From NCBI GenBank assembly GCA_007130695.1, contig SLRZ01000260.1:1-32951 (forward strand): 32,951 nucleotides of DNA. The letters are read 5' to 3'. A model generated the notes under the pieces. That model made no database searches and was not told the origin of the DNA. It was given only the letters and a program-made list of their open reading frames with translations. This document shows positions 8,755 through 32,438 of the stretch, piece by piece. How positions within the stretch are numbered: position 1 is the first letter of the stretch; each line of letters opens with the position of its first letter. This DNA is from Nitriliruptoraceae bacterium (lineage in GTDB: Bacteria; Actinomycetota; Nitriliruptoria; Nitriliruptorales; Nitriliruptoraceae). The translations under genes and the position numbers were made by a program.

Positions 8755-9177
8755 TCAGGATTCCCCGGCGTCCTTCCAGAAGCCAAGGACGAATACCGAT
8801 CCACCGAGGGCGACCGCGCCCAGCAGCACCGAGGGCCAGACGGGCTCACCGGGGCTCAGGCCGCCCAGGAGGTCGTAGGCAACCAGTACCGCCGGGACCG
8901 CGAGCAGCCACAGCTTCGAATCGACACCGCGGCGATCGAGAACCCCCGCCGCCACTCTGGTGGCGAGCGCCATCGCCGCGCCGCCCCAAACCGCCACGAT
9001 CCCGTACCGCAAGGCCGGAGCCGTCTCGACGATCTGGTCGATTCCGAGGACGACGACGAACGTGAGCGTCAGGCTCAAAGCGACGTAGACCCCGAGCCAG
9101 CCGAGTAGGGAGAGAGCGCCAGCGAACACCAGGTTGGTGGCCTGATGCTCTGAGCGGCGCGACACGCTGCCACTCAT
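8755..9177 (-). CDS. four-helix integral membrane protein at the end of the pilus-associated operon
   Basis: A 140-aa protein with four predicted membrane helices (about residues 15-45, 53-75, 85-103 and 112-133) and short loops. The start at 9177 (MSGSVSRRSEH) overlaps the stop of the lipoprotein gene upstream as ATGA; the long track ORF that begins at 9465 is an upstream shadow. No motif links it to a named family. As the last gene of the run that begins with the large Flp-headed protein it may assist surface display or export, but that rests on position only. Confidence 0.72.
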   Translation of the reverse strand: MSGSVSRRSEHQATNLVFAGALSLLGWLGVYVALSLTLTFVVVLGIDQIVETAPALRYGIVAVWGGAAMALATRVAAGVLDRRGVDSKLWLLAVPAVLVAYDLLGGLSPGEPVWPSVLLGAVALGGSVFVLGFWKDAGES

Positions 9178-9674
9178 GGCTTCACCGCCACGCGAGCGGT
9201 CAGGTCCGCGTCGTCCTCGGAGCTGGCCACATGGCACAACCCGCCGTATCCGTAGCCGATCCTCAGCACGCCCGAGCGGCCATCGTCGAAGGTGATCTCG
9301 GCCTGCGGCCACGATGTCGAGGTGCCACGACCCGCGCCGACGGAGCCGGCGGTGCGGCCACGGCTCGATGCCTCCGAGACCGTCCATGACACCGGGCGGG
9401 GCAGCGTGGCGGCATGGTGATCGGTGAAGGCCTCGCGATCCGCGGCCAGCACACCCTCGTCGCACACTTGCGTCCAGGCGGCGTCGAGATCTCCGGTGCT
9501 GAGCGCCTCGAGATAGGCCTCCACCATGGCCACCTGGTCCTCGCTGGTCACCGTGTTCTCCGCCCCACTCTCGGGCTCACTCCGTCCGGCCGGCCCGAGG
9601 CAGCCGGCGACCAGGAGTGTGAGCGCCAGTGCGCCCGAACGTCGTCGCAGGCGTCCCGACGGGTCAGCCACCAT
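9174..9674 (-). CDS. lipoprotein with possible NTF2-like/DUF4878-type domain
   Basis: A 166-aa predicted lipoprotein: basic N-terminus (RLRRR), hydrophobic stretch and lipobox LVAGC with Cys25. After an acidic linker comes a segment (QVAMVEAYLEALSTGDLDAAW) that looks like the first helix of a small cone-shaped NTF2-like fold, followed by short strands and a C-terminal region containing GYGYGGLCHVA. Function unknown. It overlaps the upstream lipoprotein gene by 11 bases and the downstream membrane-protein gene by 4, so it is translated as part of one operon. The NTF2-like assignment is tentative. Confidence 0.75.
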   Translation of the reverse strand: MVADPSGRLRRRSGALALTLLVAGCLGPAGRSEPESGAENTVTSEDQVAMVEAYLEALSTGDLDAAWTQVCDEGVLAADREAFTDHHAATLPRPVSWTVSEASSRGRTAGSVGAGRGTSTSWPQAEITFDDGRSGVLRIGYGYGGLCHVASSEDDADLTARVAVKP

Positions 9675-10227
9675 CGACCCGCAACGTCTCCAGGGCCACC
9701 TCGACCATCTGCTCGGTGATGAGATCCTCGGGCCCCACCAGCCGCATCAGCACCGCGTGTTCGTTGTCGTACATGGCACCCGCGTAGGTGAAGAAGACGG
9801 TCTGACCGTCCAGAGCCGGAGCCTCGATGCTCAACTGGATCAGGAAGGCGTCGTCGCTGCCGGCGACCTCGAGGCTGCGCCGTTCGTGTTGCTCGTGCCC
9901 AGGCGCCACCGAGAGCTGACCGGCCATGACGGAGACGGCCTCCTCGGCCGTGGAGACCGGTTCGCTGTAGCGCCACAGCGAAGCCCCCACGTGGAGTTCC
10001 TCCGCATCGGGGTGCTCGGCTACCACCGCGTCGGGATCGGCTTCGAGGAGGGTTTCGTCGTCACCGTCGTCCCAGTCGTCGGGGACGCCCACCGCGGCGA
10101 CCTGATGCTCGAGGAGCCGGTAGTCATCGGGTGGGGCCACGGCCTCCGGGGCGTCGTCGCATCCAGCGGCGGTCAAGAGCAGGACGGCGCCGAGTGCCGC
10201 ACGTTCGCTAAGTCGACGGCGAGGCAT
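9664..10227 (-). CDS. acidic lipoprotein, function unknown
   Basis: A 187-aa predicted lipoprotein: MPRRRLSER, a hydrophobic core and lipobox TAAGC with Cys23, then a strongly acidic body. AGGAG is 5 bases before the ATG. The fold looks alternating alpha/beta, including VGVPDDWDD, a central strand/helix unit and a final TEQMVEVALETLRVDG helix. The VPDDW segment and the closing helix are shared with the unrelated-locus lipoprotein at 32439, suggesting the same broad family (DcrB/LpqN-like, tentative). It starts 27 bases after the large Flp-headed gene and overlaps the next gene, so it is probably part of that operon and outside the membrane. Confidence 0.76.
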   Translation of the reverse strand: MPRRRLSERAALGAVLLLTAAGCDDAPEAVAPPDDYRLLEHQVAAVGVPDDWDDGDDETLLEADPDAVVAEHPDAEELHVGASLWRYSEPVSTAEEAVSVMAGQLSVAPGHEQHERRSLEVAGSDDAFLIQLSIEAPALDGQTVFFTYAGAMYDNEHAVLMRLVGPEDLITEQMVEVALETLRVDGG

Positions 10228-10254: not shown

Positions 10255-11595
10255 CTAGCCGACGCAGTCGGTGAAGGTCACGAGGTCGCGGTCGCCCGAC
10301 GGGGTGGGAGCTCCGAGATAGTAGGCCTCGACCGCGGTGCTCGTCGACGTGCTGAAGCCTCCGCGTGCACCGAGCTTCGCCCCCAGAGCCGCTTTCGCTC
10401 CAACCGACAGGCCCGATTCCGTGCCTTCGTAGCCCACCAGGCTGACTCGTGCCTCGTCCGCGACGAGTTGGTGGAACGCGTCTGGGTCCGGACTCGTGCC
10501 GCTCAGCCAAAGCCGAGCCTCCTCTCGTGCTGCGGCGTCATCGAGTGGCACCGTGACCTTCTCCACGAGGCTCGCTGTCCCGGCACCGCTCAACAGGGCG
10601 GTGGTCTCGGGAAGGTTCGATCCGATGGCGGCCAGCTGCGTTCCACTGACGCTGTTGACCAGCTCGATCTCGACCAGATTCCCTTGGGCGTCCTGGGTGA
10701 GTCGCGCCACCGAGGTCATGCCCACCTCGCCACCGACTTCGCCAGCGACCCAACTCACGTCACCGCTGGCGGTCATCGACACCTCGAAGTAGTCCGTGTA
10801 GGTCCAGTTCTCGGGGTCCGGATCACCGAGGTTCTGTTCCTGCCCGAGATACATCGTGGACTCGACCCCGGTGGAGGCCCCGGCGACCTGCTGGCCGAGG
10901 TATTCGAGTTCCACACCGGCGGTGAGCTCTGCCTCCACGCCGGCAGCGATGAACACCTTGTCGGGGCCCGCGAGTTCCCCGAAGAGCAGGTCTCCGGCCC
11001 AGCTCGCCAGCGGGTCGCCGACCAACGGCAGCCTTCCGACGGTCTGCTGGAGGCCTTCACCCTTGATCAGGCGGTCCTGGAGCGCGTCCGCATCGCTGCT
11101 ACCCACCACCCAGCTGGCGCCCTCCTCGGCCACGAGTCCCGCGGAGGCGTCCGCGGTGGCACCGAGAGTGCCCGGCCCGTACTCGACCTCCGCGCCGACG
11201 CCTGCGGTCAGTCCCACCCCGCCGTCGTCGACGAGCGTGAACTCCGTGGTGCCGTCACTTCTCTCGGTGCGGGCGAAGGTCATGCCCGCCTGCGCCGTGA
11301 AGAAGGCGACGGAGACGTCGACATCCCCCTGATAGGAGCGCTCCGAGACGTCACAGGCATCGGGGCGGAAGTCCTCGTCGGTGAGGGCGCGCTGATCCCC
11401 GACATCGCAGGCCACGTCGCCGACGAGGCAGAAGGCACTGCGGATCGTCTCGCCGATCGTCTCGGCGACGGTTGTGGGCGCGACGAAGATGATCAGTGCG
11501 ACCGCCAGCGCGCTCACGGCGATGTACTCGCCGGTGCTCGCCCCGCCCTCGTCCCGCCAGTCCACGTTCGTCCCCGAAGTCGCCGTCACGCGCAC
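10255..11595 (-). CDS. large surface protein with a Flp-type prepilin N-terminus
   Basis: A 446-aa protein whose first about 55 residues match the neighbouring Flp pilin pattern: acidic run, then GG/ASTGEYIAV (cleavage after Gly18, Glu at +5, Tyr at +6), a hydrophobic helix and ETIGETIRSAF, as in the 84-aa Flp protein at 14269. Real Flp pilins end there; this one continues for about 390 residues of beta-rich, Gly/Thr/Asp-rich sequence with four Cys (56, 63, 80, 444) and no recognised domain. It looks like a minor or tip pilin/adhesin assembled by the Tad machine. The GTG start at 11595 has only a distant GAGG; a GTG at residue 11 is an alternative. It begins an operon with two lipoproteins and a membrane protein. 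Confidence 0.85.
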   Translation of the reverse strand: MRVTATSGTNVDWRDEGGASTGEYIAVSALAVALIIFVAPTTVAETIGETIRSAFCLVGDVACDVGDQRALTDEDFRPDACDVSERSYQGDVDVSVAFFTAQAGMTFARTERSDGTTEFTLVDDGGVGLTAGVGAEVEYGPGTLGATADASAGLVAEEGASWVVGSSDADALQDRLIKGEGLQQTVGRLPLVGDPLASWAGDLLFGELAGPDKVFIAAGVEAELTAGVELEYLGQQVAGASTGVESTMYLGQEQNLGDPDPENWTYTDYFEVSMTASGDVSWVAGEVGGEVGMTSVARLTQDAQGNLVEIELVNSVSGTQLAAIGSNLPETTALLSGAGTASLVEKVTVPLDDAAAREEARLWLSGTSPDPDAFHQLVADEARVSLVGYEGTESGLSVGAKAALGAKLGARGGFSTSTSTAVEAYYLGAPTPSGDRDLVTFTDCVG

Positions 11596-11673: not shown

Positions 11674-11693
11674 GGGCCCATTCACGTGGGCCC
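11674..11693 (-). terminator. GGGCCCA hairpin 79 bp upstream of the large Flp-headed gene
   Basis: GGGCCCA and TGGGCCC form a perfect 7-bp stem with a 6-base loop. The stop codon of the DUF192 gene lies in the loop, and the large Flp-headed gene starts 79 bases downstream. A closely similar hairpin precedes the Flp gene at 14634. It may end the flp-DUF192 transcript or act in the leader of the next one. There is no T-run. Confidence 0.55.
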
Positions 11694-12041
11694 CGGCGAC
11701 GCGCCGGTGTGGGTCGCGGCGACGGTGACCTGCACTCCGGGCGTCACACCCCAGAGGTGGAAGCCTCCCGCTTCCGCCTCCAGAACCGCACGTGCGCGCA
11801 GCAGCGGACGTCCAAGCCGGCCGGGAGGCATCGTCGTGCACCTCAAGACCACACCCCGGCGATCGAGGTGGGCAACGTCGATCGGGAAGCGCATCCCCGC
11901 CGAATGCACCTGCCGGGTGCGTGGAAGCCACAGCGCGCCGTCGAGGCCCTCGCGCCCGAGCAGCCCTCGTCGTCGGGTGCGCCGACTGTCGGCCACCTCG
12001 ACGGCGCAGACGTCGCGACCGTCGACGTGGAGCCGCATCAC
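11682..12041 (-). CDS. DUF192 family protein
   Basis: A 119-aa DUF192 protein. Family signature: RRRGLLGREGLDGALWL, then the hallmark VHSAGMRFPIDVAHLDRRG, then LEAEAGG and a C-terminal beta strand. DUF192 is a small beta-barrel fold of unknown role that is often found beside Tad pilus genes in actinobacteria, so the location fits. The GTG at 12041 overlaps the TGA of the OmpA-domain gene (an ATG follows directly, giving TGATG); GAGG upstream favours the GTG. No signal peptide is evident, so it is probably cytoplasmic. Confidence 0.86.
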   Translation of the reverse strand: MMRLHVDGRDVCAVEVADSRRTRRRGLLGREGLDGALWLPRTRQVHSAGMRFPIDVAHLDRRGVVLRCTTMPPGRLGRPLLRARAVLEAEAGGFHLWGVTPGVQVTVAATHTGASPGPT

Positions 12042-12643
12042 CGTTCGGCCTCGGGGTCCACGTCCCGCAGGAGGATCTCGACCCGTCGGTTCTGCTGGCG
12101 TCCTTCGGACGAGTCGTTGTCGGCGACCGGTTCCACCTCGCCTCGGCCTTCGACGTGCAGGCGCGCCCGCTCGACACCAGCGGTCACCAGGTGGTCGGCC
12201 ACTGCCTCCGCGCGTCGCTCCGAGAGGCCGAGGTTGTAGTCAGCGGCGCCCTGGGCGTCCGTGTGGCCGACGATCTCCACCGGCGCCGTGTCGTAGTGCT
12301 CGAGCACCTCGAGGATCTCGTCCAACGCCGCATGGGCGTCGCGACGGAGTGTGGCTTCGTCGAAGTCGAAGAGCACCTCGGCGGGGACCGTCATCAGCGT
12401 GCCTTCGTCGGTCCGTCGGCCGTCGTAGTCGCTGATGATCTCCCGGATACGGACTTCAGCCTCGGACGTGACGTCGTCGCCACCGGTGGTCGTGGCCGTG
12501 GACGCGACGTCATCCGCAGCCACCTCCTCGTCCGTGGCGCTGGACGTCTCGGTGTCGGTCGTCTGCTCATCGGCGTCCTGGCACGCCCAGAGCAGGCACG
12601 CCAGGGCCGCGAACGAAAGGAGCGTTCGGACCGGACCGGTCAT
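12038..12643 (-). CDS. OmpA-domain lipoprotein (peptidoglycan-binding)
   Basis: A 201-aa protein: hydrophobic leader with a lipobox-like LWAC (Cys21), a Thr/Asp/Glu-rich linker (residues about 22-80), then an OmpA-like peptidoglycan-binding domain (about 88-195). Its motifs are LFDFDEATLR, VEIVGHTDAQGAADYN, LSERRAEAV and the NRRVEI end. The NxxLSxxRAxxV and NRRVE residues that contact diaminopimelate are kept. In a cell without a classical outer membrane it probably anchors the pilus or its surface proteins to the wall. It overlaps the upstream lipoprotein by 4 bases (ATGA) and the DUF192 gene downstream. Trp at -2 of the lipobox is unusual. Confidence 0.88.
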   Translation of the reverse strand: MTGPVRTLLSFAALACLLWACQDADEQTTDTETSSATDEEVAADDVASTATTTGGDDVTSEAEVRIREIISDYDGRRTDEGTLMTVPAEVLFDFDEATLRRDAHAALDEILEVLEHYDTAPVEIVGHTDAQGAADYNLGLSERRAEAVADHLVTAGVERARLHVEGRGEVEPVADNDSSEGRQQNRRVEILLRDVDPEAER

Positions 12644-13260
12644 GATGACGTGTCCCCGGCGACGGGTAGGTCTCGGAACTCGAAGGAGGGGAACCGCGCG
12701 TGCTCACGATCGACGTTGAGCGCCCCTTGGCTACCCCAGTTGAGCAGCAGATCGAGGGTGACGTCGTCGTCCGAGAGCTGCCCGACGAAGCCCAGGGTCG
12801 CGGTCAACTCCCCACCGGAGGGCACCGACAGATCGGGGTTGTCCTCCGGTGGGCGGAAGTCGAAGGTGCGCCCTTGGGGGGCCTCGAGCCGGATGTAGCG
12901 GCCCGACTCCGCAAGGCGGATGTCTTCCTGCGACGGGTTGAACGCTTCCAGGTCGACGTACACGGCGCGGTCGTCGATGGTGAGGCCGGTGACCGTCACC
13001 GTTGCGCCCGAGGGGTGCGTTTCGGTTTCCTCCAGGTCGACCGAGCGAGGCGATGGCGACTCCTCGGTCTCGCTTGCGGAGTCCTCCGCCGACCCTTCTT
13101 CGCCGTCGATGGCCTCCTCGGACGCCTCCGGATCCGCATCGTCCTGCGACTCGACCGCGACCTCGTCCGTGTCATCGGCCTCGTCGTCACCGCGGTCGGT
13201 GCAAGCCGCAAGGAGCGAACAGGCAAGCAGTAGCGCGGTCGCACGGGACCAGGACCTCAT
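12640..13260 (-). CDS. acidic lipoprotein with Ig-like/DUF4352-type domain
   Basis: A 206-aa predicted lipoprotein. The start is ATG 13260, with AGGAG 6 bases upstream (the longer track ORF is a shadow). The signal ends in LLAAC with Cys20, followed by about 65 residues almost entirely Asp, Glu, Ser and Ala, probably a flexible spacer. The C-terminal half (VTVTGLTIDDRAVYVDLEAFNPSQEDIRLA ... LTATLGFVGQLSDDDV) looks like an immunoglobulin-like beta sandwich of the DUF4352 type. It is probably exported and lipid-anchored, working with the OmpA-domain protein that follows by a 4-base overlap. Specific role unknown. Confidence 0.78.
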   Translation of the reverse strand: MRSWSRATALLLACSLLAACTDRGDDEADDTDEVAVESQDDADPEASEEAIDGEEGSAEDSASETEESPSPRSVDLEETETHPSGATVTVTGLTIDDRAVYVDLEAFNPSQEDIRLAESGRYIRLEAPQGRTFDFRPPEDNPDLSVPSGGELTATLGFVGQLSDDDVTLDLLLNWGSQGALNVDREHARFPSFEFRDLPVAGDTSS

Positions 13261-13318: not shown

Positions 13319-14263
13319 CTAGTCAAGTCTGGCCGGGTCGATCAGGTACGGGTCGGTGGCCTCGATACCGATGTGGCCGGGAGCAGGCCGCGGACTGAGC
13401 CCCCCGCACTCGTCGTGGTCCGCGTGGGACGCGTACGCCGGCAGAGTGGCCGGGTGGGGGCGACACAGCGGTGGGTCCGCCATGGCCGAGAGAGCACCCT
13501 GCAGAGCAGCGTGGTCGCTGGTCTCGAGCGCGAGGCCCCAGTTGAGAAGCGTCGCGCCAGGCGGGAGCGGGTGCCCGCCCCGCCAGCGATCCAGTTGCTC
13601 TCCGAAGCTGACGAACCCGTGGGTGATGGACAGGTCGGCACCCATTTCGTCCTCGACCCGCAGCACCGCCTCCTGCATCGCGGTGCGAAGATTGCGGGTG
13701 TCGGCGCTGCCACAGCTGACAAGGCCAGAAGAATCGGGTGGGTCGAGGCCCGCGTCCTCAGCGACGGCCTGGGCCTCTGCGAGGGTCAGACAACCCGGTG
13801 ACGGGGCGCCGTGCAAGGTCAACTCCACGACCGCAGCGGCCTCGGCTCGACCACGGGTGTCCGCCATCTCCTCGTCGATCGACGGTTCCCCGATGCCCCC
13901 CGCGGTGCGGGTGGTGACCCTCACGACGACGGTTCGGCGATCGACCGACACCACACTGAACTCATCCAGCTCGCTGTCGTTGGCTTCGGCATACTGCTCC
14001 GCACGCTGCCTGGCGGGCCCGGCGATGTCGCCGGCCACCGCGCCGGATGCGAGGTAGGCGATCCCGCCGGGGCCTTCGAGTGCGTCGGCGAGCGCGTCTG
14101 CGCCCGCCAGTGCGGCCGCGTCGGCGGCCGTGACCGCGGTGGCCCGAAGCTCAGTGAGGCGGCCGCCCTGCGTCAGGGCGACCGCCGTGATCATGAGTCC
14201 GACGATGGCGATGAGTACCAGTGGCAGCGCCTGGCCGGCCTCGTCCTGCCATCGACCAGGCAT
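13319..14263 (-). CDS. TadE/TadG-like protein with degenerate VanY-like (M15) C-terminal domain
   Basis: A 314-aa protein. The N-terminus (DEAGQALPLVLIAIVGLMITAVALTQGG, then LRATAVTAADAAALAGADAL) is the actinobacterial TadE/G-like 'secretion neighbourhood' type, with one membrane helix, but it lacks Glu at +5 after AG, so prepilin cleavage is doubtful. From about residue 175 on (LRTAMQEAVLRVEDEMG, ITHGFVSFGEQLDRW, PPGATLLNWGLALE) it reads like a VanY/M15 D-Ala-D-Ala carboxypeptidase. However, the SxHxxGxAxD zinc motif has become TLLNWGLALE, so His and Asp ligands are lost and it is probably a non-catalytic wall-binding domain. It starts 5 bases after the flp stop. Confidence 0.78.
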   Translation of the reverse strand: MPGRWQDEAGQALPLVLIAIVGLMITAVALTQGGRLTELRATAVTAADAAALAGADALADALEGPGGIAYLASGAVAGDIAGPARQRAEQYAEANDSELDEFSVVSVDRRTVVVRVTTRTAGGIGEPSIDEEMADTRGRAEAAAVVELTLHGAPSPGCLTLAEAQAVAEDAGLDPPDSSGLVSCGSADTRNLRTAMQEAVLRVEDEMGADLSITHGFVSFGEQLDRWRGGHPLPPGATLLNWGLALETSDHAALQGALSAMADPPLCRPHPATLPAYASHADHDECGGLSPRPAPGHIGIEATDPYLIDPARLD

Positions 14264-14268
14264 CTGGG

Positions 14269-14523
14269 TCAGCTCACCACCAACTCGCGCACCTGGTCGA
14301 AGGCGGCAACGACCGCATCCCGGATCGCCCCGCCGATGTCGTCGCCGAAGTTGATCACGATTCCGATGACGGCGGCGATCAGCACGATCACGGCCACGTA
14401 CTCGGCGGTCGCCTGGCCGTCCTCGTCCCGGTCGGCGTCGGCCAGCGTCGTCACCAGACGGTTGCGCAGCGCGACGTAGCTGCGGAGGCTCGCGGTGTCC
14501 AGCTGCTCGGCGAGGTGCTTCAT
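14269..14523 (-). CDS. flp: Flp/Fap-type major pilin prepilin
   Basis: An 84-aa class IVb prepilin, the main subunit of the Tad pilus. The leader is long and basic; the cleavage region is DEDG/QATAEYVAV (Gly36, Glu at +5, Tyr at +6), followed by a single hydrophobic helix (AVIVLIAAVIGIVI) and a short helical tail (GGAIRDAVVAAFDQV). AGGAGAG is 6 bases before the ATG at 14523, so the longer track ORF is not real. It is the first gene after the GGGCCCA hairpin and the start of a group running to the DUF192 gene. A prepilin peptidase is needed but is not in this window. Confidence 0.93.
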   Translation of the reverse strand: MKHLAEQLDTASLRSYVALRNRLVTTLADADRDEDGQATAEYVAVIVLIAAVIGIVINFGDDIGGAIRDAVVAAFDQVRELVVS

Positions 14524-14610
14524 GGGATGCTCTCCTGGGGTGTCCCTGCGGGGGTCGGTCAGCGTCGTCTTCGACGCTACGCGGGTGCACCTGGGTCGCG
14601 GCAGGGCCTG

Positions 14611-14683
14611 CGGCACCAACAGCTTCCCGGTATGGGGCCCATTCTCCTGGGCCCCCGACGGAGGTGAGGCCCCCGGCACCAAC
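14611..14683. repeat. 10-bp direct repeats flanking the flp-leader hairpin
   Basis: CGGCACCAAC occurs at 14611-14620 and again at 14674-14683, 63 bp apart (about six helical turns), with the GGGCCCA hairpin between them. They lie between the response-regulator gene and flp. They are candidates for response-regulator binding sites on one face of the DNA; this is inference from position and spacing. Confidence 0.45.
14634..14655 (-). terminator. GGGCCCA hairpin 110 bp upstream of flp
   Basis: GGGGCCCA (14634-14641) and TGGGCCCC (14648-14655) form a perfect 8-bp stem with a 6-base loop. It lies between the end of the cpaB-to-regulator operon and flp. It could end the first transcript while flp is driven from its own promoter, or be a leader element. 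There is no T-run after it. Its near copy is at 11674-11693. Confidence 0.6.
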
Positions 14684-14709
14684 GGTGGGCCGTCTCCGTT
14701 GCGACGCCG

Positions 14710-15345
14710 TCACGACGGGCCCTCCTCAGCGAGCCCCAACCACACGGCGACGGCCTGCGCCCGCTGGTCGACGGCGAGTTTCGCGTAGATGTGGTTGATG
14801 TGGTTCTTGACGGTCTTGTCCGACACGAAGAGCCGCTCGGCGATCTCGCCATTGGACAGACCCCGGGCAACCAGGTCCATGACTTCGCGCTCGCGCTCGG
14901 TCAGGCCGTGGCGGTCGTCCGCGCGGCTCGGTGCGCTGCGCAGTGCCTCGAAGACCGCGGGCGTCGCCTGCTGCGAGAGCAGCGAGCCCCCGCAATGCAC
15001 GGTGCGGATCGCTTGCCCGAGGTCGATGGGGTCGAAGGTTCCGTGGACGAGATAGCCCGACGCGCCCGCCCGGATCGCGCTGGTGACGATGTCGGGATCG
15101 TCGGAGTAGGTGAGCATGAGGATCCGGGTGTCGGCCGAAAGCCTGCTTGCCGCCGAGACACCGTCCAGCACCGGCATGCGCACATCCAGTAGCACCACGT
15201 CCGGTCGCAGGACTCTTGCGCGATCGATGGCTTCCTGCCCGGTCGCAGCTTCACCCACGACCTCGACGTCGTCGATGGTGAGCAGGAGTGCGCGCAGTCC
15301 GCCTCGAATGACGGGGTTGTCGTCGGCGAGGAGCACACGGATCAC
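14710..15345 (-). CDS. NarL/LuxR-family response regulator
   Basis: A 211-aa two-component regulator. The receiver (1-120) has the acidic pair ADDN, phospho-acceptor Asp54 in LLDVRMP, the switch Thr/Ser in MLTYS and the Lys position replaced in GYLVHGT (His where Lys is usual). The LuxR helix-turn-helix (about 147-205) reads LTEREREVMDLVARGLSNGEIAERLFVSDKTVKNHI. The GTG start overlaps the stop of the histidine-kinase gene (GTGA), so the pair is made together. It is the last gene of the tad assembly operon and lies directly before flp, which is its most likely target. The Lys-to-His change in the receiver may alter phosphorylation signalling. Confidence 0.92.
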   Translation of the reverse strand: MIRVLLADDNPVIRGGLRALLLTIDDVEVVGEAATGQEAIDRARVLRPDVVLLDVRMPVLDGVSAASRLSADTRILMLTYSDDPDIVTSAIRAGASGYLVHGTFDPIDLGQAIRTVHCGGSLLSQQATPAVFEALRSAPSRADDRHGLTEREREVMDLVARGLSNGEIAERLFVSDKTVKNHINHIYAKLAVDQRAQAVAVWLGLAEEGPS

Positions 15346-16529
15346 GCGGGCACCTCCTCGACGTCGTGACCGGGACAGCGCAGTTCCAGGTGTGTGCCCT
15401 GGCCGGGGGCGGAACGCAGCGTCAGTTCACCGCCGAGGAGTTGCGCCCGTTCCCGCAGGCCGACCAGGCCGTGATGGCCTTCCCGTCCGAACACGGTGAG
15501 GTCCGCTGGTAGCTCGAAGCCCTCCCCGTCATCGCGGACGTGCAGCCGGATCCCGCTGCACCCCAGTTCCAGCTCCACCTCGACGCGTTGCGCGCGGGCG
15601 TGGCGCGAGACGTTGCACAGCGCTTCGCGCAGGATCTGCAGCAACTCGTGGCGAGCACGCGGTGCGAGCTCTCCGTCGCCGACGACGTGCAGCGCCGTCT
15701 CCAGGCCCTCGGTCTCGCCGACCAGCGCGAGCTCTTCGCGGACGACCTCGTGCAGTGAGCGTCGCGGGTCGTCGGCCCGCAGATCGCTCAGTAGCGCCCG
15801 GGTTTCGGAAGCAGCGATCTCGGCGGCGTGACGGATCCGGACGGCTTCGTGACGCGCGCGCTCGGGGTCGCTGCGGGTGAGGGCGTCGAGGCTCACCGCC
15901 GAGAGCACGATCCCGTGGAGGGTCTTCGCAACCGAGTCGTGCATCTCGCGAGCGAGACGGGCACGTTCTTCGGCAGTGACCGCTCGAACGAGGCCGCTCC
16001 GTGCGGCGCGTAGCGCGACGTCGCGGTCGATGAGCAGCCGGCGCAGTTCGGCGCCCAGCAGCGCTCCGCCCGGCAGCAGCGCCGGGACGACCAAAGTGGC
16101 CGCCACGGGTGCGCCGGGCAGGTACACGGTGGCCGCCATCCCGTAGCCGGCGAGCAGGAGGATGGCGAGCACGACACCACCGGCGCGTGCGTAGAGGATG
16201 CCGGCGAGCACGGCCGTGGTGACCACGTACAGGGTGAACGGCGTGTCGACGCCGGCCGTGCCGAGGACGATGACGGAGACGGCGAGATCGAGTGCCATCG
16301 CACTGGGGTGGCGAAGCACCCAGTCACCGATGCGTGTCCACAGCAGCAGCGGCAGCACCGAGGTGCCGGCCATGAGCACGACCACGCCGAGTGCATCGAG
16401 CGTGCTCGGCGCGGCGGCCAGCGACACCAGCAGCAGCACGACCACCCGGACGTTGAGCAGCAGCCGTACCAGGGGTGCGAGCACTGTGGCCGCGTGTCGG
16501 TCCGGAGCGGGGAGGGCCAGCCCGGTCAT
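15342..16529 (-). CDS. membrane sensor histidine kinase (HisKA_3, NarL-pair type)
   Basis: A 395-aa kinase: about five membrane helices in residues 20-160 with almost no extracellular loop, then HisKA_3 with REMHDSVAKTLHG (phospho-His197), then an HATPase domain with HELLQILREALCNVSRHARA (N box), DDGEGF (G1), GREGHHGLVGLRERAQLLGG (G2) and SAPGQGT. The lack of an external domain suggests it senses a membrane or intracellular signal. The ATG at 16529 overlaps the tadC stop by 4 bases; the track start at 16670 lies inside tadC and is wrong. It pairs with the response regulator encoded immediately downstream. Confidence 0.92.
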   Translation of the reverse strand: MTGLALPAPDRHAATVLAPLVRLLLNVRVVVLLLVSLAAAPSTLDALGVVVLMAGTSVLPLLLWTRIGDWVLRHPSAMALDLAVSVIVLGTAGVDTPFTLYVVTTAVLAGILYARAGGVVLAILLLAGYGMAATVYLPGAPVAATLVVPALLPGGALLGAELRRLLIDRDVALRAARSGLVRAVTAEERARLAREMHDSVAKTLHGIVLSAVSLDALTRSDPERARHEAVRIRHAAEIAASETRALLSDLRADDPRRSLHEVVREELALVGETEGLETALHVVGDGELAPRARHELLQILREALCNVSRHARAQRVEVELELGCSGIRLHVRDDGEGFELPADLTVFGREGHHGLVGLRERAQLLGGELTLRSAPGQGTHLELRCPGHDVEEVPA

Positions 16530-17401
16530 GGCACGATCTCTGGCTGGCCGGTTGCGGCCAGCATCGCCGCAACGATCATGATGATGGAGGCGGGGACGAG
16601 CGTGAAGGCCACGATCAGGCTCACCCGCGGGACGGCCTGCGCCGCCTTCCGCCGTGCGCGCTGGTTCCACTGCTCTCGTAGATCGTCGGCCATCGACCGG
16701 AGGGTGTCGCTCAGGGGGGCGCCCAACTCCTCGGCCTGGCGCAGCGCGACCACGAAGGAGTCGAGGACCTCCGACTCGTTACGGGTCCGCAGCGCTTCGA
16801 AGGCCTCCCGGCGCGACATGCCGAACGACATCTGCCGCAACGCGGTCTCCACCTCCTCGGCGAGTGGGCCCTCGAAGGCATCAGCGATCCGCCGCAGCGC
16901 GGACTGGAAGCCGAGGCCGGCCTCGACGGTCACCGACAGCACGTCGAGGAAGTCGGGGAGGTCCCGCTCGAGGCGGTCCTGGCGACGACGCACGGCCGCA
17001 CGAAGCCACAGATCCTGCAGGAGCCCACCGGTGACGGCCACCAGCAGACCCGTGACCGTTTGCCCGATCAGCAGGAGCAGGAGCCCGGCGCCGCCCAACG
17101 AGAGCGCGTAGGCCGTGCGGCGGGCAAGGAACGATTCCGCGGTGAGACCCTCCGGGCTTCCGGCCGCCTCGAGCCGTCGCTGATAGCGACGGAAGCTCGC
17201 ATCGGGCACCATCGAACGTGTCAGAGGCAGCAGGGAGACCGCGAACCGGTCCACCAGGGACCGGCGCGGCTTGGGCGCCTCCTCGCGGACCCTGGCCGTC
17301 GGCTCGAAGCGCTCCCAGGCCACGGGAGAGCGAAGCAAGCGCACGCCGGCGCCAGCTGTGGCCAGACAGGCCAGCAGCGCGACGACCAGGACGGGCACCA
17401 C
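16526..17401 (-). CDS. tadC: TadC, Tad pilus inner-membrane platform protein
   Basis: A 291-aa T2SSF/GspF-domain membrane protein. It has an N-terminal membrane helix, a central pair of helices (about 92-128), the GspF core LPDFLDVLSVTVEAGLGFQSALRRIADAFEGPLAEEV and FVVALRQAEELGAPLSDTLRSMADDLR, and a final hydrophobic helix. With TadB it forms the platform that the TadA ATPase drives. The GTG start has AGGAG 6 bases upstream, overlapping the tadB stop codon, with only 9 bases between genes; this is the one junction in the operon without an overlap. Confidence 0.93.
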   Translation of the reverse strand: MVPVLVVALLACLATAGAGVRLLRSPVAWERFEPTARVREEAPKPRRSLVDRFAVSLLPLTRSMVPDASFRRYQRRLEAAGSPEGLTAESFLARRTAYALSLGGAGLLLLLIGQTVTGLLVAVTGGLLQDLWLRAAVRRRQDRLERDLPDFLDVLSVTVEAGLGFQSALRRIADAFEGPLAEEVETALRQMSFGMSRREAFEALRTRNESEVLDSFVVALRQAEELGAPLSDTLRSMADDLREQWNQRARRKAAQAVPRVSLIVAFTLVPASIIMIVAAMLAATGQPEIVP

Positions 17402-17410
17402 GATTCGCTC

Positions 17411-18337
17411 CTAGATGTCGATGGTCTGATGACGACGGATGAGTACGACACCGACTGCGTACAGCCCGACCGCGACGGTCGTCGCCACGATGCCCATTGC
17501 GCTGGACAGGATCGTGTCCAGGGCGCCGGGGGTGATGGCGTTCATGAGCAGGACGGCGCCGACGCCAAGCCCCATGACCACATAGCCGGTGTAGACCGCG
17601 CCAGCCATCAGGGAGCGAAGTTCGCTGCGAAGGTCCTTTCGCTGATCCAGCGTGCGGGCCATTTCACGGAGCGCCTGCACGAGGTCACCGCCGGCACGCT
17701 GCTGGATGAGCAGCGTGGTCACCATCACCTCGACCTCGCGGCTGGGTAGTCGCTGGGAGAGGTTCTGCAGGGCGCGGTCAAGCGACTGCCCGATCCGCAG
17801 CTCTTCGGCGACGGCCGCAAGTTCAGTGCCAGCCGGGTCCTCGAGTTCGCGTGCCGCCAGGCGCATCGCTGAAGGCAGTGACCGGCCTGCGGACGCGGCA
17901 TTGGAGATCGTGCGCGCGAGTTCGGGAAGTTGCGTGACGAACTCGTCCCGGCGGCGCTGTCGCTGACGTTCGAGCTGGAAGCGGACCAGTCTCCAGGCGC
18001 CGTAAGCACCGAGCGGCGCCAACCAGGTGGGCACGAAGCGGTCGAGGACGACGAAGCCGAGCACGACGGCGGAGACCACGATGGTCATGGCGGCCAGCAC
18101 GCTGAGGGGCAGCCCGACAGCTCGCAACTCCGACGCGACCCGCTCACCGAGTCGGGTACGGCGCAGCGCGGCGTCGATCCGGTAGCGAAGCGTCGACGCA
18201 CGAGCCTCGACTCGGGTCAGCGCTGAGCGGCGGATCAGCGCGCGGCGCTCTTCGAAGTCGATCCACACCTGGCGCACGCCAAGACCGGCCACCCCGAGCA
18301 CCAGGAGGCACAACAGCATGATGACGGCCGGACTCAC
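17411..18337 (-). CDS. tadB: TadB, Tad pilus inner-membrane platform protein
   Basis: A 308-aa platform protein: N-terminal helix (residues 4-22), a basic cytoplasmic stretch, two helices (about 78-115), the GspF domain (QLPELARTISNAASAGRSLPSAMRLAARE and LIQQRAGGDLVQALREMARTLDQR), and two C-terminal helices. This is the standard TadB layout and length. It overlaps the tadA stop by 4 bases (GTGA). Confidence 0.93.
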   Translation of the reverse strand: MSPAVIMLLCLLVLGVAGLGVRQVWIDFEERRALIRRSALTRVEARASTLRYRIDAALRRTRLGERVASELRAVGLPLSVLAAMTIVVSAVVLGFVVLDRFVPTWLAPLGAYGAWRLVRFQLERQRQRRRDEFVTQLPELARTISNAASAGRSLPSAMRLAARELEDPAGTELAAVAEELRIGQSLDRALQNLSQRLPSREVEVMVTTLLIQQRAGGDLVQALREMARTLDQRKDLRSELRSLMAGAVYTGYVVMGLGVGAVLLMNAITPGALDTILSSAMGIVATTVAVGLYAVGVVLIRRHQTIDI

Positions 18338-19692
18338 GGGCGCATGTCCTCCACGACGGTGACGTGCTCCTCGGGGTCGAGTGAGACGTCAAAGGCCTCG
18401 GGAAGATCCACACCGGCGCGCGCGAGCCGGTCTCGGACCGGGGCAGGCAGCCCGTAGTGGATGAACCTCCCGGTGACGGTGCGGTCCGGGCGGCCACGGT
18501 CGGGCACGTATTCGGCAATCGTTGCGAGCTTGATCTGCTCCCAGTGCTCGGAGACGGTGGCCGAAATCTCGGCGACCTTCCGGGAACCGTCGGGGAAGCG
18601 TTCGAGATGGACGAGAACCTCGACGGCGCCGTTGATCTGGTCGCGCAGTGCTTCGAAGCTCATGTTCAGATCGGTCATCGACGCGAGCGTCTCGAGCCGC
18701 ATGACGGCATGCCGAACCGAGTTCGCGTGCACGGTCACCAGCGAACCTTCGTGGCCGGTGTTCATCGCCTGGAGCATGTCGACGGTCTCTTCGCCGCGGA
18801 CCTCACCGACGATGATGCGGTCGGGGCGCATGCGCAGGCTGTTGCGTACCAGCTCTCTGATGGTGACCTCGCCCTTGCCCTCCACGTTCTCCGGCCGGGC
18901 TTCGAGCGCCACCACGTGGGGCTGCTGCAGCTGGAGCTCCGCGGCGTCCTCGATGGTGACGATCCGCTCGTCTTCGGGAATCGAGCTCGACAGGGCGTTG
19001 AGGAAGGTGGTCTTCCCGGTGCCGGTTCCCCCGGAGACGACGATGTTGAGCCGCGCGCGCACCAGTGCGTCGAGCAGTTCGACCATCGCCTCGGAAACCG
19101 TCCCGTTGTCGATCAGCTCCGACAGGTCGAATGGACGCGGGAAGCGACGGATGGTGATCGAGGGACCCTTGAGTGCCAGCGGGGGGATGATGACGTTGAC
19201 GCGCTCTCCGGTGGGCAGCCGCGCGTCGACCATGGGGCTGGACTCGTCGACACGCCGGTTGACCCCGGCCACGATCCGCTCGATCGTCTGGTAAAGCTGT
19301 GCCTCCGAGGTGAAGCGCCGATCCTCCACCCGAGTGAGGCGCCCACTTCGCTCGACCCAGATGTCGTCGATCCCATTGACCATGATCTCGGTGACCTCAT
19401 CGTCGGCGAGCAGCGGCTCGAGGACGCCGAGACCGAGCATCTCGTCGACGACGGACCGGATCAGGCTGCTGCGCTCCTCACTGGTGATCACCGGCCCTTC
19501 GCGGGTCAACAGGCTCCCGGCGATCCGCTCGAGGCGGATCCGGAGCTGGTGCGCGTCCAACTGTGAGAGCTGGGCGAGGTCGGCTTCCTCGAGCAGTTGA
19601 CGTCGGAACTGGGCCACCGCGTCGGGCGCCGCCTCGCTCTCCACATCCGAGAGGCGGCTACCCCGCTCCTGTCGACGGGACTTGAGGCTCAC
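18334..19692 (-). CDS. tadA: TadA/CpaF pilus assembly ATPase
   Basis: A 452-aa hexameric secretion ATPase that powers Tad pilus assembly. The N-terminal helical domain (1-90) is followed by the GspE/PulE-type core: ITIRRFPRP, Walker A GGTGTGKTT (about 221-229), Asp box TIEDAAELQL (246-255), Walker B RIIVGEVRGEE (292-302) and His box GHEGSLVTVHANS (313-325). All are intact. The GTG start overlaps the tadE stop by 4 bases. Confidence 0.96.
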   Translation of the reverse strand: MSLKSRRQERGSRLSDVESEAAPDAVAQFRRQLLEEADLAQLSQLDAHQLRIRLERIAGSLLTREGPVITSEERSSLIRSVVDEMLGLGVLEPLLADDEVTEIMVNGIDDIWVERSGRLTRVEDRRFTSEAQLYQTIERIVAGVNRRVDESSPMVDARLPTGERVNVIIPPLALKGPSITIRRFPRPFDLSELIDNGTVSEAMVELLDALVRARLNIVVSGGTGTGKTTFLNALSSSIPEDERIVTIEDAAELQLQQPHVVALEARPENVEGKGEVTIRELVRNSLRMRPDRIIVGEVRGEETVDMLQAMNTGHEGSLVTVHANSVRHAVMRLETLASMTDLNMSFEALRDQINGAVEVLVHLERFPDGSRKVAEISATVSEHWEQIKLATIAEYVPDRGRPDRTVTGRFIHYGLPAPVRDRLARAGVDLPEAFDVSLDPEEHVTVVEDMRP

Positions 19693-20066
19693 GAGGACTC
19701 CTCACTCGATGCGCGCTGGGGAATCGTGGCACTGCGCTCGACGGTCCATTCCGGCAACGAAACGGCTCCGAGGACGCTTGGCACCGTCAGAGTGACGGTG
19801 ACCCGCTCGCTCTCGACCACCACCGGCCCCAAGCGCGCAACCTCCGCCGAGGAGAGGGAATGGGTAGCTGCCGCGTGCGGGTCACCGCCGTCGCGCATCG
19901 CACGGCTGGCGTTGCGTGCGGCGTTCTCCGACGCGACCGCAGTCGAGACGAACAGCTGCATCTGCACCGCAACCAGTGCGGCGATTACCAAGACCGGCAG
20001 GATGGCGACGATCTCGACCAAGGCCGATCCCTCGTCGCGATCCCACCACCTGTGTCGTCCGCTCAT
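19689..20066 (-). CDS. tadE: TadE-like pseudopilin
   Basis: A 125-aa minor pseudopilin. Short basic/aromatic N-terminus, then DEG/SALVEIVAILPVLVIAALVAVQ: Gly13 before the cut site, Glu at +5 and a single hydrophobic helix, then a small periplasm-side or outer-side domain with beta strands (VVVESERVTVTLTVPSV). The pattern NAARNASRAM after the helix is typical of TadE. The ATG overlaps the stop of the upstream CpaE-TadE gene (ATGA). It follows another TadE-like segment fused to CpaE, so the locus encodes two different TadE types. Confidence 0.9.
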   Translation of the reverse strand: MSGRHRWWDRDEGSALVEIVAILPVLVIAALVAVQMQLFVSTAVASENAARNASRAMRDGGDPHAAATHSLSSAEVARLGPVVVESERVTVTLTVPSVLGAVSLPEWTVERSATIPQRASSEESS

Positions 20067-21649
20067 GGCTCCCGAGCCTCCTCGAGCACGGCCCCGGAGC
20101 GCGACTCCATGGTGCCCACGGTGTTGAAGCCAGGCATCAGTACCGGAATCCCGACCTCGACCTGCACCCAGTCGCCGCCCTGACGAATCTCGACCGTCGA
20201 GCGCCAGCCTTCGGGTAGACGGTGGATGACGGCAGTGCCGACGTCGTCATAGACACCGTCGCCGGTGGCGTCGACCTGCTCGGAGACCGCCAGTTGGCGG
20301 GCACCCTCCCGTGCCGCGTTCTGCACCATCACCTGGGTCCAGCCGGCGAGGGCCAACTGCCACATGAGGAGCAGAGCCATCATGAGCAGCGGCAACGCCG
20401 CGATGAAGTCCACAGCCGCTTGACCACGCTCGCCGTCGAGCACCCGGGCCTCGAGCGACGTCGCCTCCGGCGCCGGCGTGGCGCTCGTCTCGGCGTCGCC
20501 GGTCAACCCGAGTTCGTCGATGAGGTCATCCACGGCGCGCAGGACCGGCCCCTGCACGCGCAGGGGCTGGCCGGTATTCGCGCCCACCTCGAGGTCGCGG
20601 AAGCGGGCAGGCACGGTGGTCTGCAGCAGTGGCGCCTTGACGACGCGCCCGCAGAGGTCCGGTTGGATCTCGGTGTCGCGGTCGACACGGTTGACGAGTG
20701 CCCGCACGTTGTCGCGGGGGATGGCGACGCGCTCCCACATGGCGAGGAGCCGGTTGGCCCCGCGCAGCGAGGGCACATCGGTCTGGGTGACGACGATCGG
20801 GGCGTCCGCCATCTCGGCGACTGTTGCCGTGGCTTCGGTCATCACCGAGCCCAGGTCGACCACCACGACGTCGAAACGGGCGCGCAACCGTGCCAGTACC
20901 CGGCGCACCACAAGCCCGTCCACATCCTCGGCCAGCTCCCCCTCGACGGGCGGCAGCAGCACCTGGAACCCATCGGCGTGGGGGAAGAGCGCTTCGTCGA
21001 GATGACGGGTGCTGAGCTCATCGACCACGGCGGTGAGGTCGAGGATCGAGCGACGGTGGCTGATGTCGAGCAGCGAACGCACGTCTCCGGACTGCAGATC
21101 GAGGTCGACCAGGCAGACCGCGCGGTCGGGCCTGGCGGCGGCGAGGCGTTCCGCGAGGAGCACGGACAACGTCGTGGTTCCCACGCCGCCCTTGGCCCCA
21201 GCGAGGCAGACGACCTTGCCGAACCTGCGGCTTCGCCCGGCGCCGTCGTCACCAAGCCGGTCACGGACCGCCGTGGCCCACTCTCCCGCCGAAGCCACGG
21301 CGCCGGTGAGATCCTCGACTCCCAGAGGCAGCGTCACGACCCCGCGGACGCCGGAGAACATGGCCGAGCGCATCAGCTCCGGCGTATTCTCCTCGGCGAT
21401 CAGCACCAACCCGACGTCGGGGTGGCGGCGGTTGAGTTCGGCGCCGAGCTCGAGGACGGGCACGGGGCCGAGGTGCTCGTGGAGGACCACGATGTCGATG
21501 TGGGCCTCTGAGATCGCTGCGGTCACCTCACTGCTGGTGCCTGCGACCTCGACGGCGACGACCCCGTCGGTTCCCTCGAGCACTGCGCGCGCCTGCTCGA
21601 TGACCTCGTGCTCGCTGGGCGGAATGGCAAGCAGGATCCGGTGGCTCAT
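20063..21649 (-). CDS. cpaE: CpaE/TadZ pilus-localising ATPase fused to a TadE-like pseudopilin
   Basis: A 528-aa two-part protein. Residues 1-130 are a receiver-like domain lacking the phospho-Asp (VVLHEHLG). Residues 140-390 are a MinD/ParA-type ATPase with deviant Walker A GAKGGVGTTT (151-160), LVDLDLQSGDV and VVVDLGS: this is CpaE/TadZ, which places the pilus machine in the cell. After a Pro/Ala linker, residues 404-528 are a TadE-like unit: GERG/QAAVDFIAALPLLMMALLLMWQ, then QNAAREGARQLA. Asp414 replaces the usual +5 Glu. The frame is continuous with no stop or shift. A GTG at residue 403 with GAGG 5 bases before it could start the TadE part separately. Cleavage after Gly409 would split the two. 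Confidence 0.9.
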   Translation of the reverse strand: MSHRILLAIPPSEHEVIEQARAVLEGTDGVVAVEVAGTSSEVTAAISEAHIDIVVLHEHLGPVPVLELGAELNRRHPDVGLVLIAEENTPELMRSAMFSGVRGVVTLPLGVEDLTGAVASAGEWATAVRDRLGDDGAGRSRRFGKVVCLAGAKGGVGTTTLSVLLAERLAAARPDRAVCLVDLDLQSGDVRSLLDISHRRSILDLTAVVDELSTRHLDEALFPHADGFQVLLPPVEGELAEDVDGLVVRRVLARLRARFDVVVVDLGSVMTEATATVAEMADAPIVVTQTDVPSLRGANRLLAMWERVAIPRDNVRALVNRVDRDTEIQPDLCGRVVKAPLLQTTVPARFRDLEVGANTGQPLRVQGPVLRAVDDLIDELGLTGDAETSATPAPEATSLEARVLDGERGQAAVDFIAALPLLMMALLLMWQLALAGWTQVMVQNAAREGARQLAVSEQVDATGDGVYDDVGTAVIHRLPEGWRSTVEIRQGGDWVQVEVGIPVLMPGFNTVGTMESRSGAVLEEAREP

Positions 21650-22347
21650 CGCAGGCCCTCCTCGAGCACGTACCGACGGCGGGCATCGGGGATGTCCTCG
21701 GTGTCGGCGGCGGTACGCAGACCGAGTCGGACTTCGCTGGCGAAGCTCTCCGCATAGGCGAGCACCAGCGCATCGTCAGCGTTCAGCGCAAAGGTGACGG
21801 GCACGGCCGTGTTGCTCGCGAACCCGGCGTCCGGATCGGCTTGTTCGACAGCGGGAGCGATGTCCACGATCCGCACTGCCTGCAGGACCAGCTCCGAACG
21901 GGGCGGCTCATCGCCCTGTCCCGCAAATGTCGCGTAGACGTCGACGACATCGCCAGCTTGGATCTTGCCGCCGACCCCGGTCTCTGGGCTGACCAGGATC
22001 GCGAACTCGCGTTCCCGCGGGGCGATCTCTGGCGGCTCGGTCAGTACACCCCGCTGGATGACGGTGCCTGCTGGCAGGTCGCTGGCTGCCACGAGCGTCC
22101 CGAGGTCGTCGGCGGCGCCAAGCGCACCGTCTGGGGCCCACCGCTGGGGGATCTCGACCTCCTCGAGATCCCGGGGCCGGATCGGCTCGTAGCGGTCGAG
22201 GTCACGATCCAGCTGCAGCACGGTCTGCATCGGACCCAGCTGCGACTGGACATCGGAGACGTAGCTGACGACAGCCCCGAGGACGGCGAGCGCCCCGACG
22301 ATGGACGCGGCCAGCAGCAGGGCGCCGCGGCGCTGGCGAGGGTTCAC
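21646..22347 (-). CDS. cpaB: CpaB/RcpC pilus assembly protein (SAF domain)
   Basis: A 233-aa protein: one N-terminal membrane helix (residues 8-30), then an SAF-like domain with the pattern IRPRDLEEVEIPQRWAP and DDLGTLVAASDLPAGTVIQRGVL, then a beta-rich part with FAILVSPETGVGGKIQAGDVVDVYATF. CpaB/RcpC helps organise the outer pilus channel or interacts with peptidoglycan in Tad systems. The real start is the GTG at 22347, with AAGGA upstream, overlapping the stop of the zinc-ribbon gene (GTGA). The track start at 22464 is inside that gene. Confidence 0.9.
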   Translation of the reverse strand: MNPRQRRGALLLAASIVGALAVLGAVVSYVSDVQSQLGPMQTVLQLDRDLDRYEPIRPRDLEEVEIPQRWAPDGALGAADDLGTLVAASDLPAGTVIQRGVLTEPPEIAPREREFAILVSPETGVGGKIQAGDVVDVYATFAGQGDEPPRSELVLQAVRIVDIAPAVEQADPDAGFASNTAVPVTFALNADDALVLAYAESFASEVRLGLRTAADTEDIPDARRRYVLEEGLR

Positions 22348-32347: not shown

Positions 32348-32438
32348 GCCACGGACACCCTACCGAGCGAGCTCCGCACGCCGCTGATCGGTCCACAACG
32401 GGAGGTAGCCTCACCGCGGTGCCGGACGAGGAGTGCAC

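What the first reader, a model, noticed from the sequence alone, without database searches (positions are those of the whole stretch)
10255..11595. 446-aa protein headed by a Flp prepilin sequence
The first 55 residues match the Flp pilin of the same locus, including G/ASTGEY and the post-helix segment, but about 390 residues of unknown, Gly/Thr/Asp-rich sequence with four Cys follow. This looks like a minor or tip pilin that uses the Tad machine to display a large domain, possibly an adhesin. It heads an operon with two lipoproteins and a membrane protein.
Basis: partly seen in the sequence, partly recalled or inferred. Interest (0 to 1): 0.8.

Follow-up and report, generated by a model that had tools for sequence, protein, structure and literature searches.

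The report
Pilin-headed barrel protein, likely antibacterial effector
A bacterial gene fuses the head of a tiny pilus subunit to a large barrel-like domain, and its relatives carry the same head on known bacterial toxins with their immunity genes, which suggests that these pili carry weapons against other bacteria and not only glue.

Summary
Window 10255-11595 (-) encodes a 446-aa protein with a genuine Flp (type IVc) prepilin head, G18|ASTGEY plus helix, in the same-strand gene run of a Tad pilus locus. It is followed by two lipoproteins and a small membrane protein. The 371-residue body matches no Pfam, NCBIfam or PDB sequence but defines a family found across Actinomycetota. Each Flp-headed body starts and ends with one cysteine. 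A three-sequence AlphaFold model of a 29%-identical homologue (pLDDT 64) resembles 12-14-strand transmembrane beta-barrels. Three findings argue for a secreted effector over an adhesin. (1) The same kind of Flp head, usually with a C..C pair after the helix, precedes standard polymorphic-toxin domains (PT-HINT, bacterial RNase A, Tox-REase-5, WHH nuclease, RHS, calpain, thermolysin, lipases), two with recognisable SUKH or Imm52-like immunity genes next door. (2) The same body occurs behind T7SS/ESX-type heads, there without any cysteine. (3) The family co-occurs with one TadA type (11 of 13 genomes versus 22 of 383). Shown: the modules, families and co-occurrence. Inferred: Tad-dependent export, barrel insertion, and immunity by the lipoprotein. 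I found no published account of Flp-headed toxins, in a partial library.

The parts
10255..11595 (-). 446-aa Flp-headed beta-body protein (GTG start; alternative GTG at 11565)
   Evidence: single copy in own genome; family across the phylum
11407..11541 (-). mature Flp-like head, residues 19-63 after the predicted cut G18|ASTGEY, ending in the C56..C63 pair
   Evidence: head profile without self E 1.3e-11; alignment of 16 heads
10255..11370 (-). body, residues 76-446, beta-rich, with Cys only at its two ends (C81, C444)
   Evidence: alignment A11 and Cys census; structure of homologue
9664..10227 (-). lipoprotein 1 (187 aa), homologous to the lipoprotein that follows the gene in other genomes; candidate immunity or partner protein
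   Evidence: blastp G016 E 2e-12, G012 E 3e-8; operon conservation
9174..9674 (-). lipoprotein 2 (166 aa), weak Rv0361 C-terminal-like match (NCBIfam E 0.02, below cut-off)
8755..9177 (-). small membrane protein (140 aa, 3-4 TM); a small TM protein also follows the lipoprotein in relatives
11682..12041 (-). DUF192 protein, neighbour (also near the family gene or Tad locus in G048, G016 and G154)
   Evidence: E 3e-13
12038..12643 (-). OmpA-domain lipoprotein, neighbour
   Evidence: E 1.6e-23
12640..13260 (-). lipoprotein, neighbour
13319..14263 (-). Tad/TadG-like protein
   Evidence: (PF13400 E 1.5e-4)
14269..14523 (-). Flp pilin of the locus (84 aa, no Cys after the helix)
14710..16529 (-). 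LuxR-type response regulator and HisKA_3 histidine kinase of the Tad locus
16526..18337 (-). TadC and TadB platform proteins (T2SSF)
18334..19692 (-). TadA ATPase (T2SSE)
   Evidence: E 1.6e-67; co-occurrence
19689..22347 (-). TadE-like, TadZ-TadE fusion, and RcpC/CpaB

Best explanation
The protein is a modular pilin: a Flp-type prepilin head that hands a folded extracellular effector body to the Tad (type IVc) pilus machine. Proposed steps, marked shown or inferred. (1) The head puts the protein in the membrane with the body outside and is cut after G18 by a TadV-type peptidase (motif shown, cut inferred). (2) The body folds outside, closed by a C81-C444 disulfide and a C56-C63 disulfide (cysteine pattern shown, bonds inferred). 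(3) TadA/B/C load it into or onto the Flp pilus, as minor or tip subunit (co-occurrence shown, loading inferred). (4) The body, modelled as a 12-14-strand amphipathic barrel, acts on the envelope of a neighbouring cell, most simply by inserting or perforating (inferred from a medium-confidence model of a homologue). (5) The conserved lipoprotein, and perhaps the small membrane protein, protect the producer at the same site (inferred from how partner type follows body type in sister proteins). It belongs to a wider class of Flp-headed polymorphic proteins in Actinomycetota.
For: Head is real and shared by about 25 other proteins with unrelated bodies. Bodies include PT-HINT+RNAse_A_bac, PT-HINT+WHH, Tox-REase-5 twice, Endonuclea_NS_2, RHS three times, calpain twice, M4 twice, Abhydrolase_8 four times, GDSL, DUF6782. 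Immunity genes beside them: SUKH-1 E 2e-17 after HINT-WHH, a SUKH-like gene after the NS_2 nuclease, and an Imm52-like gene (E 3e-4, below cut-off) after Tox-REase-5. Partner type follows body type: nuclease/HINT/TSP3 bodies have soluble neighbours 8/8, hydrolases mostly lipoproteins (6/8), this family envelope proteins 13/15. The same body sits behind ESX-type heads without any Cys. Barrel-like model of a homologue: CymA Foldseek E 9e-7, BrkA beta-domain Z 16.9 over 214 residues. Amphipathic strands. TadA co-occurrence 11/13 versus 22/383, Fisher 2e-11.
Against: No toxicity, secretion or pilus data. The window protein's own model is too poor to use (pLDDT 40); the usable model is of a 29% homologue from three sequences. 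The window genome holds no second Flp-headed long protein and no detectable prepilin peptidase in a 90%-complete draft. The body is more conserved and more widely kept than typical polymorphic toxin tips. Fisher values ignore shared ancestry, and the family's lipoproteins are homologous to one another, so they are not independent counts. Pfam or NCBIfam do not recognise the lipoprotein as immunity. T7SS heads are below curated cut-offs and rest on locus context.
Confidence: 0.5

Rival explanations
1. Adhesin or receptor-binding minor pilin: the Flp head places the body on the pilus tip, where it binds a surface or cell; the lipoproteins help folding or anchoring.
For: Modular pilins with grafted adhesive domains are known in T4aP (PMC10191384); Tad tips with variable domains recognise prey in Myxococcus (PMC12075869); the body is conserved and single-copy in the window genome.
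Against: No adhesin fold or family. The best structural matches are membrane barrels. Sister proteins with the same head are toxins with immunity genes. The body is also carried by T7SS/ESX-type heads, which are not pili.
Confidence: 0.22
2. Structural or priming component of this Tad subtype: the barrel caps or initiates the pilus, and the operon (lipoprotein, membrane protein) is part of assembly.
For: In the window and G048 the operon sits inside the Tad locus; strong TadA co-occurrence.
Against: At least 17 sampled genomes have this TadA without the family; in several genomes the operon lies far from the Tad locus, e.g. G016 4.23 Mb versus 5.39 Mb; ESX-headed copies exist.
Confidence: 0.13
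3. Anchored surface protein: the Flp-like head is only a signal anchor, and the protein stays in the cell membrane or is shed without entering a pilus.
For: The Cys pair after the helix is absent from most true Flp pilins seen here, so these heads may not polymerise; no prepilin peptidase was found in the window draft genome.
Against: The head keeps G|xxxxEY, which a plain anchor does not need; tight TadA co-occurrence; a TadV-type peptidase is present in 9 of 10 tested family genomes and lies about 4 kb from the family gene in G154.
Confidence: 0.15

Closest known systems
Flp prepilin (type IVc/Tad major pilin)
   Same: G|xxxxEY cut site, hydrophobic helix, Tad locus
   Different: 446 aa instead of about 50-90; Cys pair after the helix; 371-residue body
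Modular pilins of T4aP (adhesive domains grafted onto a pilin, PMC10191384)
   Same: small pilin module plus a bulky foreign domain
   Different: Flp-type head and Tad machine; bodies include toxin domains; no adhesin domain here
Myxococcus Kil Tad-pilus tips (PMC12075869)
   Same: Tad pilus, variable domains, contact killing
   Different: there TadEFG-like minor pilin complexes tied to a needleless T3SS; here a single chain with a Flp-type head and linked immunity-like genes
Polymorphic toxin systems (Zhang et al. 2012, PMC3482391)
   Same: constant export head, swappable C-terminal domain, adjacent immunity gene in sister proteins; same toxin families
   Different: Flp head as trafficking domain; that paper's held text (first 300,000 of 357,715 characters) has no mention of pilin or pili
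12-14-strand outer-membrane barrels (CymA, autotransporter beta-domains)
   Same: best fold matches of the modelled homologue
   Different: no sequence match to any PDB chain; a C-terminal Cys and no terminal aromatic residue; hosts are Actinomycetota

Membership tests
Flp prepilin | G|xxxxE(Y) cut site with E at +5 and Y at +6, then about 20 hydrophobic residues | tested here: met
   G18|ASTGEY; head profile E 1.3e-11 without self
Flp prepilin | small protein, about 50-90 aa, with nothing after the helix | tested here: not met
   446 aa; so it is a Flp-headed fusion and not a Flp pilin
Flp prepilin | encoded in a Tad locus with TadA/B/C | tested here: met
Flp prepilin | processed by TadV | tested here: inconclusive
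   no A24 peptidase in the 90%-complete draft; present in 9 of 10 family genomes
Modular (minor) pilin | pilin module joined to an independent extracellular domain | tested here: met
   the head occurs with unrelated bodies and the body with unrelated heads
Modular (minor) pilin | incorporated into a pilus | not testable with these tools
   needs sheared-pilus proteomics
Polymorphic toxin | constant N-terminal trafficking region with variable C-terminal domains among paralogues | tested here: met
   (class level, other genomes)
Polymorphic toxin | C-terminal domain with a known toxin fold in this protein | tested here: not met
   no family match; so not filed as a proven toxin
Polymorphic toxin | cognate immunity gene immediately downstream | tested here: inconclusive
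   conserved lipoprotein partner of unknown function; sister proteins have SUKH or Imm52-like genes
Transmembrane beta-barrel | closed barrel of amphipathic strands | tested here: inconclusive
   homologue model pLDDT 64, Z 15-17 to BrkA/CymA; own model pLDDT 40
Adhesin | recognisable binding fold (lectin, vWA, Ig-like) | tested here: inconclusive
   none matched by sequence; a missing fold match does not exclude one

The most novel reading that the evidence does not exclude
Tad/Flp pili of Actinomycetota are a general delivery route for polymorphic toxins. A Flp head, usually with a C..C signature, is a trafficking domain that has not been described, and this protein is its most widespread cargo: a pilus-delivered beta-barrel that attacks neighbouring envelopes and is neutralised by a surface lipoprotein.
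Probability: 0.4. Interest if true: 0.92.

Novelty: new variant of a known kind. Interest (0 to 1): 0.76.

Why it matters
Polymorphic toxins are classified by how they leave the cell (T5SS, T6SS, T7SS and others), and I found no paper that lists a pilin head among these routes. If the Flp head is such a route, the widespread actinobacterial Tad pili, usually read as adhesion gear, become candidate weapons. A simple sequence rule (G|xxxxEY, helix, then usually C..C, ORF over 250 aa) would let many unannotated toxins and immunity genes be found. The body family is also a new protein family shared between pilus-type and T7SS-type heads.

Tried and rejected
(1) Cytoplasmic enzyme: rejected, since the head is a pilin head, the cysteines are conserved, and there is no enzyme family match. 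(2) Chance resemblance of the head: rejected. (3) Single odd fusion or misassembly: rejected, with full-length homologues in many genomes and the same downstream gene. (4) Phage or plasmid gene: three viral-contig scans and a plasmid tblastn found nothing. (5) First genome-contig scan with the single protein found nothing; an alignment query found two named MAGs. (6) AlphaFold of the window protein itself was too poor to interpret (pLDDT 40; Foldseek matches weak, again OM barrels, none with E below 0.001). (7) Sequence search of the PDB with the family profile: no hit. (8) DcrB/PsbP identity of the lipoprotein: weak in one homologue only (Pfam E 0.01-0.04), left as a resemblance. (9) The known-trafficking literature searches found no Flp-headed toxin, but most subscription papers and all preprints are missing from that library.

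Full report
Observation. The ORF at 10255-11595 (-) is real: 446 aa, GTG start, with a second GTG at 11565 that would leave the motif intact. Its head reads WRDEGG|ASTGEYIAVSALAVALIIF...ETIRSAFCLVGDVAC. A profile of 15 other heads, built without this protein, finds in the whole window only the locus Flp pilin (E 9e-14), this ORF (1.3e-11) and the TadE-like gene (0.002) among 481 frames. The Tad locus (RcpC, a TadZ-TadE fusion, TadE, TadA, TadB, TadC, kinase, regulator, Flp, Tad/TadG-like) lies upstream on the same strand, and two lipoproteins and a small membrane protein follow. The gene is single in its genome, a 3.3-Mb draft that is about 90% complete. The class is probably Nitriliruptoria, because genome G048 of the same class corresponds to a record titled Nitriliruptorales bacterium.

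The body is a new family. Neither Pfam nor NCBIfam knows the protein or its homologues, and the family profile hits no PDB sequence. Homologues were found in the same family, class and phylum. In a 396-genome phylum sample, 13 genomes carry the body with a Flp head. In 200 genomes of one large family, 18 carry the body. Bodies are 16-38% identical to the window protein. Fixed features are the Flp head, a C..C pair just after the helix, an SDG motif, and one Cys at each end of the body and usually nowhere else. The downstream order of lipoprotein then small TM protein recurs in G016, G012, G010, G048, G052 and G088, and in G419 with one extra small TM protein; a lipoprotein alone follows in G154 and G053. 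The window lipoprotein is homologous to those in G016 (E 2e-12) and G012 (E 3e-8).

The head is a swappable module. A census with a head profile in 34 genomes carrying this TadA type finds many long ORFs behind the same head, up to 14 head matches in G409, 10 in G389 and 9 in G016, true Flp pilins included. Their bodies are RHS (three), Tox-REase-5 (two), PT-HINT plus bacterial RNase A, PT-HINT plus WHH nuclease, PT-HINT alone, DNA/RNA non-specific endonuclease, calpain (two), thermolysin-type M4 (two), DUF6782, Abhydrolase_8 (four), GDSL lipase, and TSP3-repeat proteins. In genome G052 a HINT-RNase A protein and a member of the present family lie less than 3 kb apart. The HINT-WHH protein is followed by a SUKH-1 gene (E 2e-17), the endonuclease by a SUKH-like gene just below cut-off, and a Tox-REase-5 protein by an Imm52-like gene (E 3e-4, below cut-off). 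So Flp-headed polymorphic toxins exist; this is shown at the sequence level. Export by the Tad machine is inferred.

The body is also swappable. A profile of the body alone finds the same domain at the C-terminus of proteins that lack a Flp head: G206, G540 (two copies) and G406. In G206 the gene sits in a T7SS-type locus with an FtsK/SpoIIIE ATPase (E 1e-56) and an EspC-like gene. The heads themselves score below the Pfam cut-offs, so 'ESX-type' rests on context. These bodies contain no cysteine, whereas Flp-headed ones keep the two end cysteines. This fits Sec export and oxidative folding in one case and cytoplasmic folding in the other. It is also what one expects of a cargo domain rather than a pilus part.

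Link to Tad. Of 396 genomes, 33 have a TadA orthologue at E 1e-135 or better. Of the 13 genomes with the Flp-headed body, 11 do; of the other 383, 22 do (Fisher 2e-11; relatedness not corrected). Within the window's family the three complete-enough genomes with the body are exactly those with this TadA (3 of 3 versus 0 of 12). A prepilin peptidase was found in 9 of 10 family genomes tested but not in the window draft. At least 17 genomes have this TadA without a match to the family profile, so the family is not a required pilus part.

Fold. AlphaFold on the window protein with two homologues is unusable (pLDDT 40). On a homologous body (L080, 29% identical, three sequences) it gives pLDDT 64 and pTM 0.60, with long strands and two helical hairpins. 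Foldseek's top matches are CymA (E 9e-7) and FadL, with autotransporter barrels lower in the list. VIA-align gives Z 16.9 to the BrkA beta-domain over 214 residues at 3.3 A and Z 15.8 to CymA. The predicted strands are two-faced: one face 65% hydrophobic, the other 55% G/S/T/N. I read this as a probable 12-14-strand barrel, not as proof of membrane insertion.

Partner logic. Neighbours of nuclease, HINT and TSP3 bodies are soluble in 8 of 8 cases. Neighbours of extracellular hydrolases are lipoproteins in 6 of 8. Neighbours of the present family are lipoproteins or membrane proteins in 13 of 15 (Fisher 0.007 for nuclease-type against hydrolases, 4e-5 with this family and RHS added; hand-assigned classes, own gene caller). 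This is what immunity proteins placed at the toxin's site of action would look like. For the present family it remains an inference.

Known work. Herrou et al. 2025 (PMC12075869) describe Tad tips built from TadEFG-like minor pilins that kill by contact. A 2023 review of type 4 filaments (PMC10191384) describes modular pilins with grafted adhesins. Zhang et al. 2012 (PMC3482391), the broad survey of polymorphic toxin trafficking, does not mention pilins in the text held. I found no account of Flp-headed toxins, within a library that lacks most subscription papers and all preprints.

Verdict. 'Adhesin' should be replaced by 'effector, probably acting on a neighbour's envelope', at about even odds. 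The wider find, Flp-headed polymorphic toxins with immunity genes in Actinomycetota, is the firmer and more important result.

Noticed in passing
window 20063-21649 (-): TadZ/CpaE-type ATPase fused to a C-terminal TadE domain (PF07811 E 2e-9) in one 528-aa frame; a 523-aa gene at the same place in G016 (L061:2063-3634) suggests the fusion is conserved.
   Followed up: partly
window 25079-27391 (-): 770-aa fusion of an MFS transporter with thymidylate kinase.
   Followed up: partly
window 12038-12643 (-): OmpA-domain lipoprotein (E 1.6e-23) inside a Tad locus of an actinobacterium.
   Followed up: no
window 11682-12041 (-); L048:4836-5186; L060:4427-4768; L052:1811-2209: DUF192 or DUF192-like genes recur next to the family gene or in the Tad locus in several genomes (the window copy by Pfam, the others by eye).
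   Followed up: no
L053, L056, L059 (genomes G325, G389, G241): In one other family the gene has no lipoprotein partner and sits beside ImuB-like and DnaE2-like genes (identified by eye) in all three genomes.
   Followed up: no
L070 (G409 C13:115000-133000): The immunity-like gene after a TSP3 Flp-headed protein (14277-14753) has a second relative at 17723-18001, as in arrays of orphan immunity genes.
   Followed up: no
L131:3438-3641 (G012) and L014 (G010): Short Flp-like pilins of two genomes carry two Cys after the helix, unlike the other true Flp pilins seen.
   Followed up: no
L150, L153 (G504): Flp-headed proteins with a divergent version of the body and a longer Cys-containing tail.
   Followed up: no
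window 32433-32951 (+): A further lipoprotein, truncated at the window end, weakly similar to the family's lipoproteins (blastp E about 0.001-0.01).
   Followed up: no
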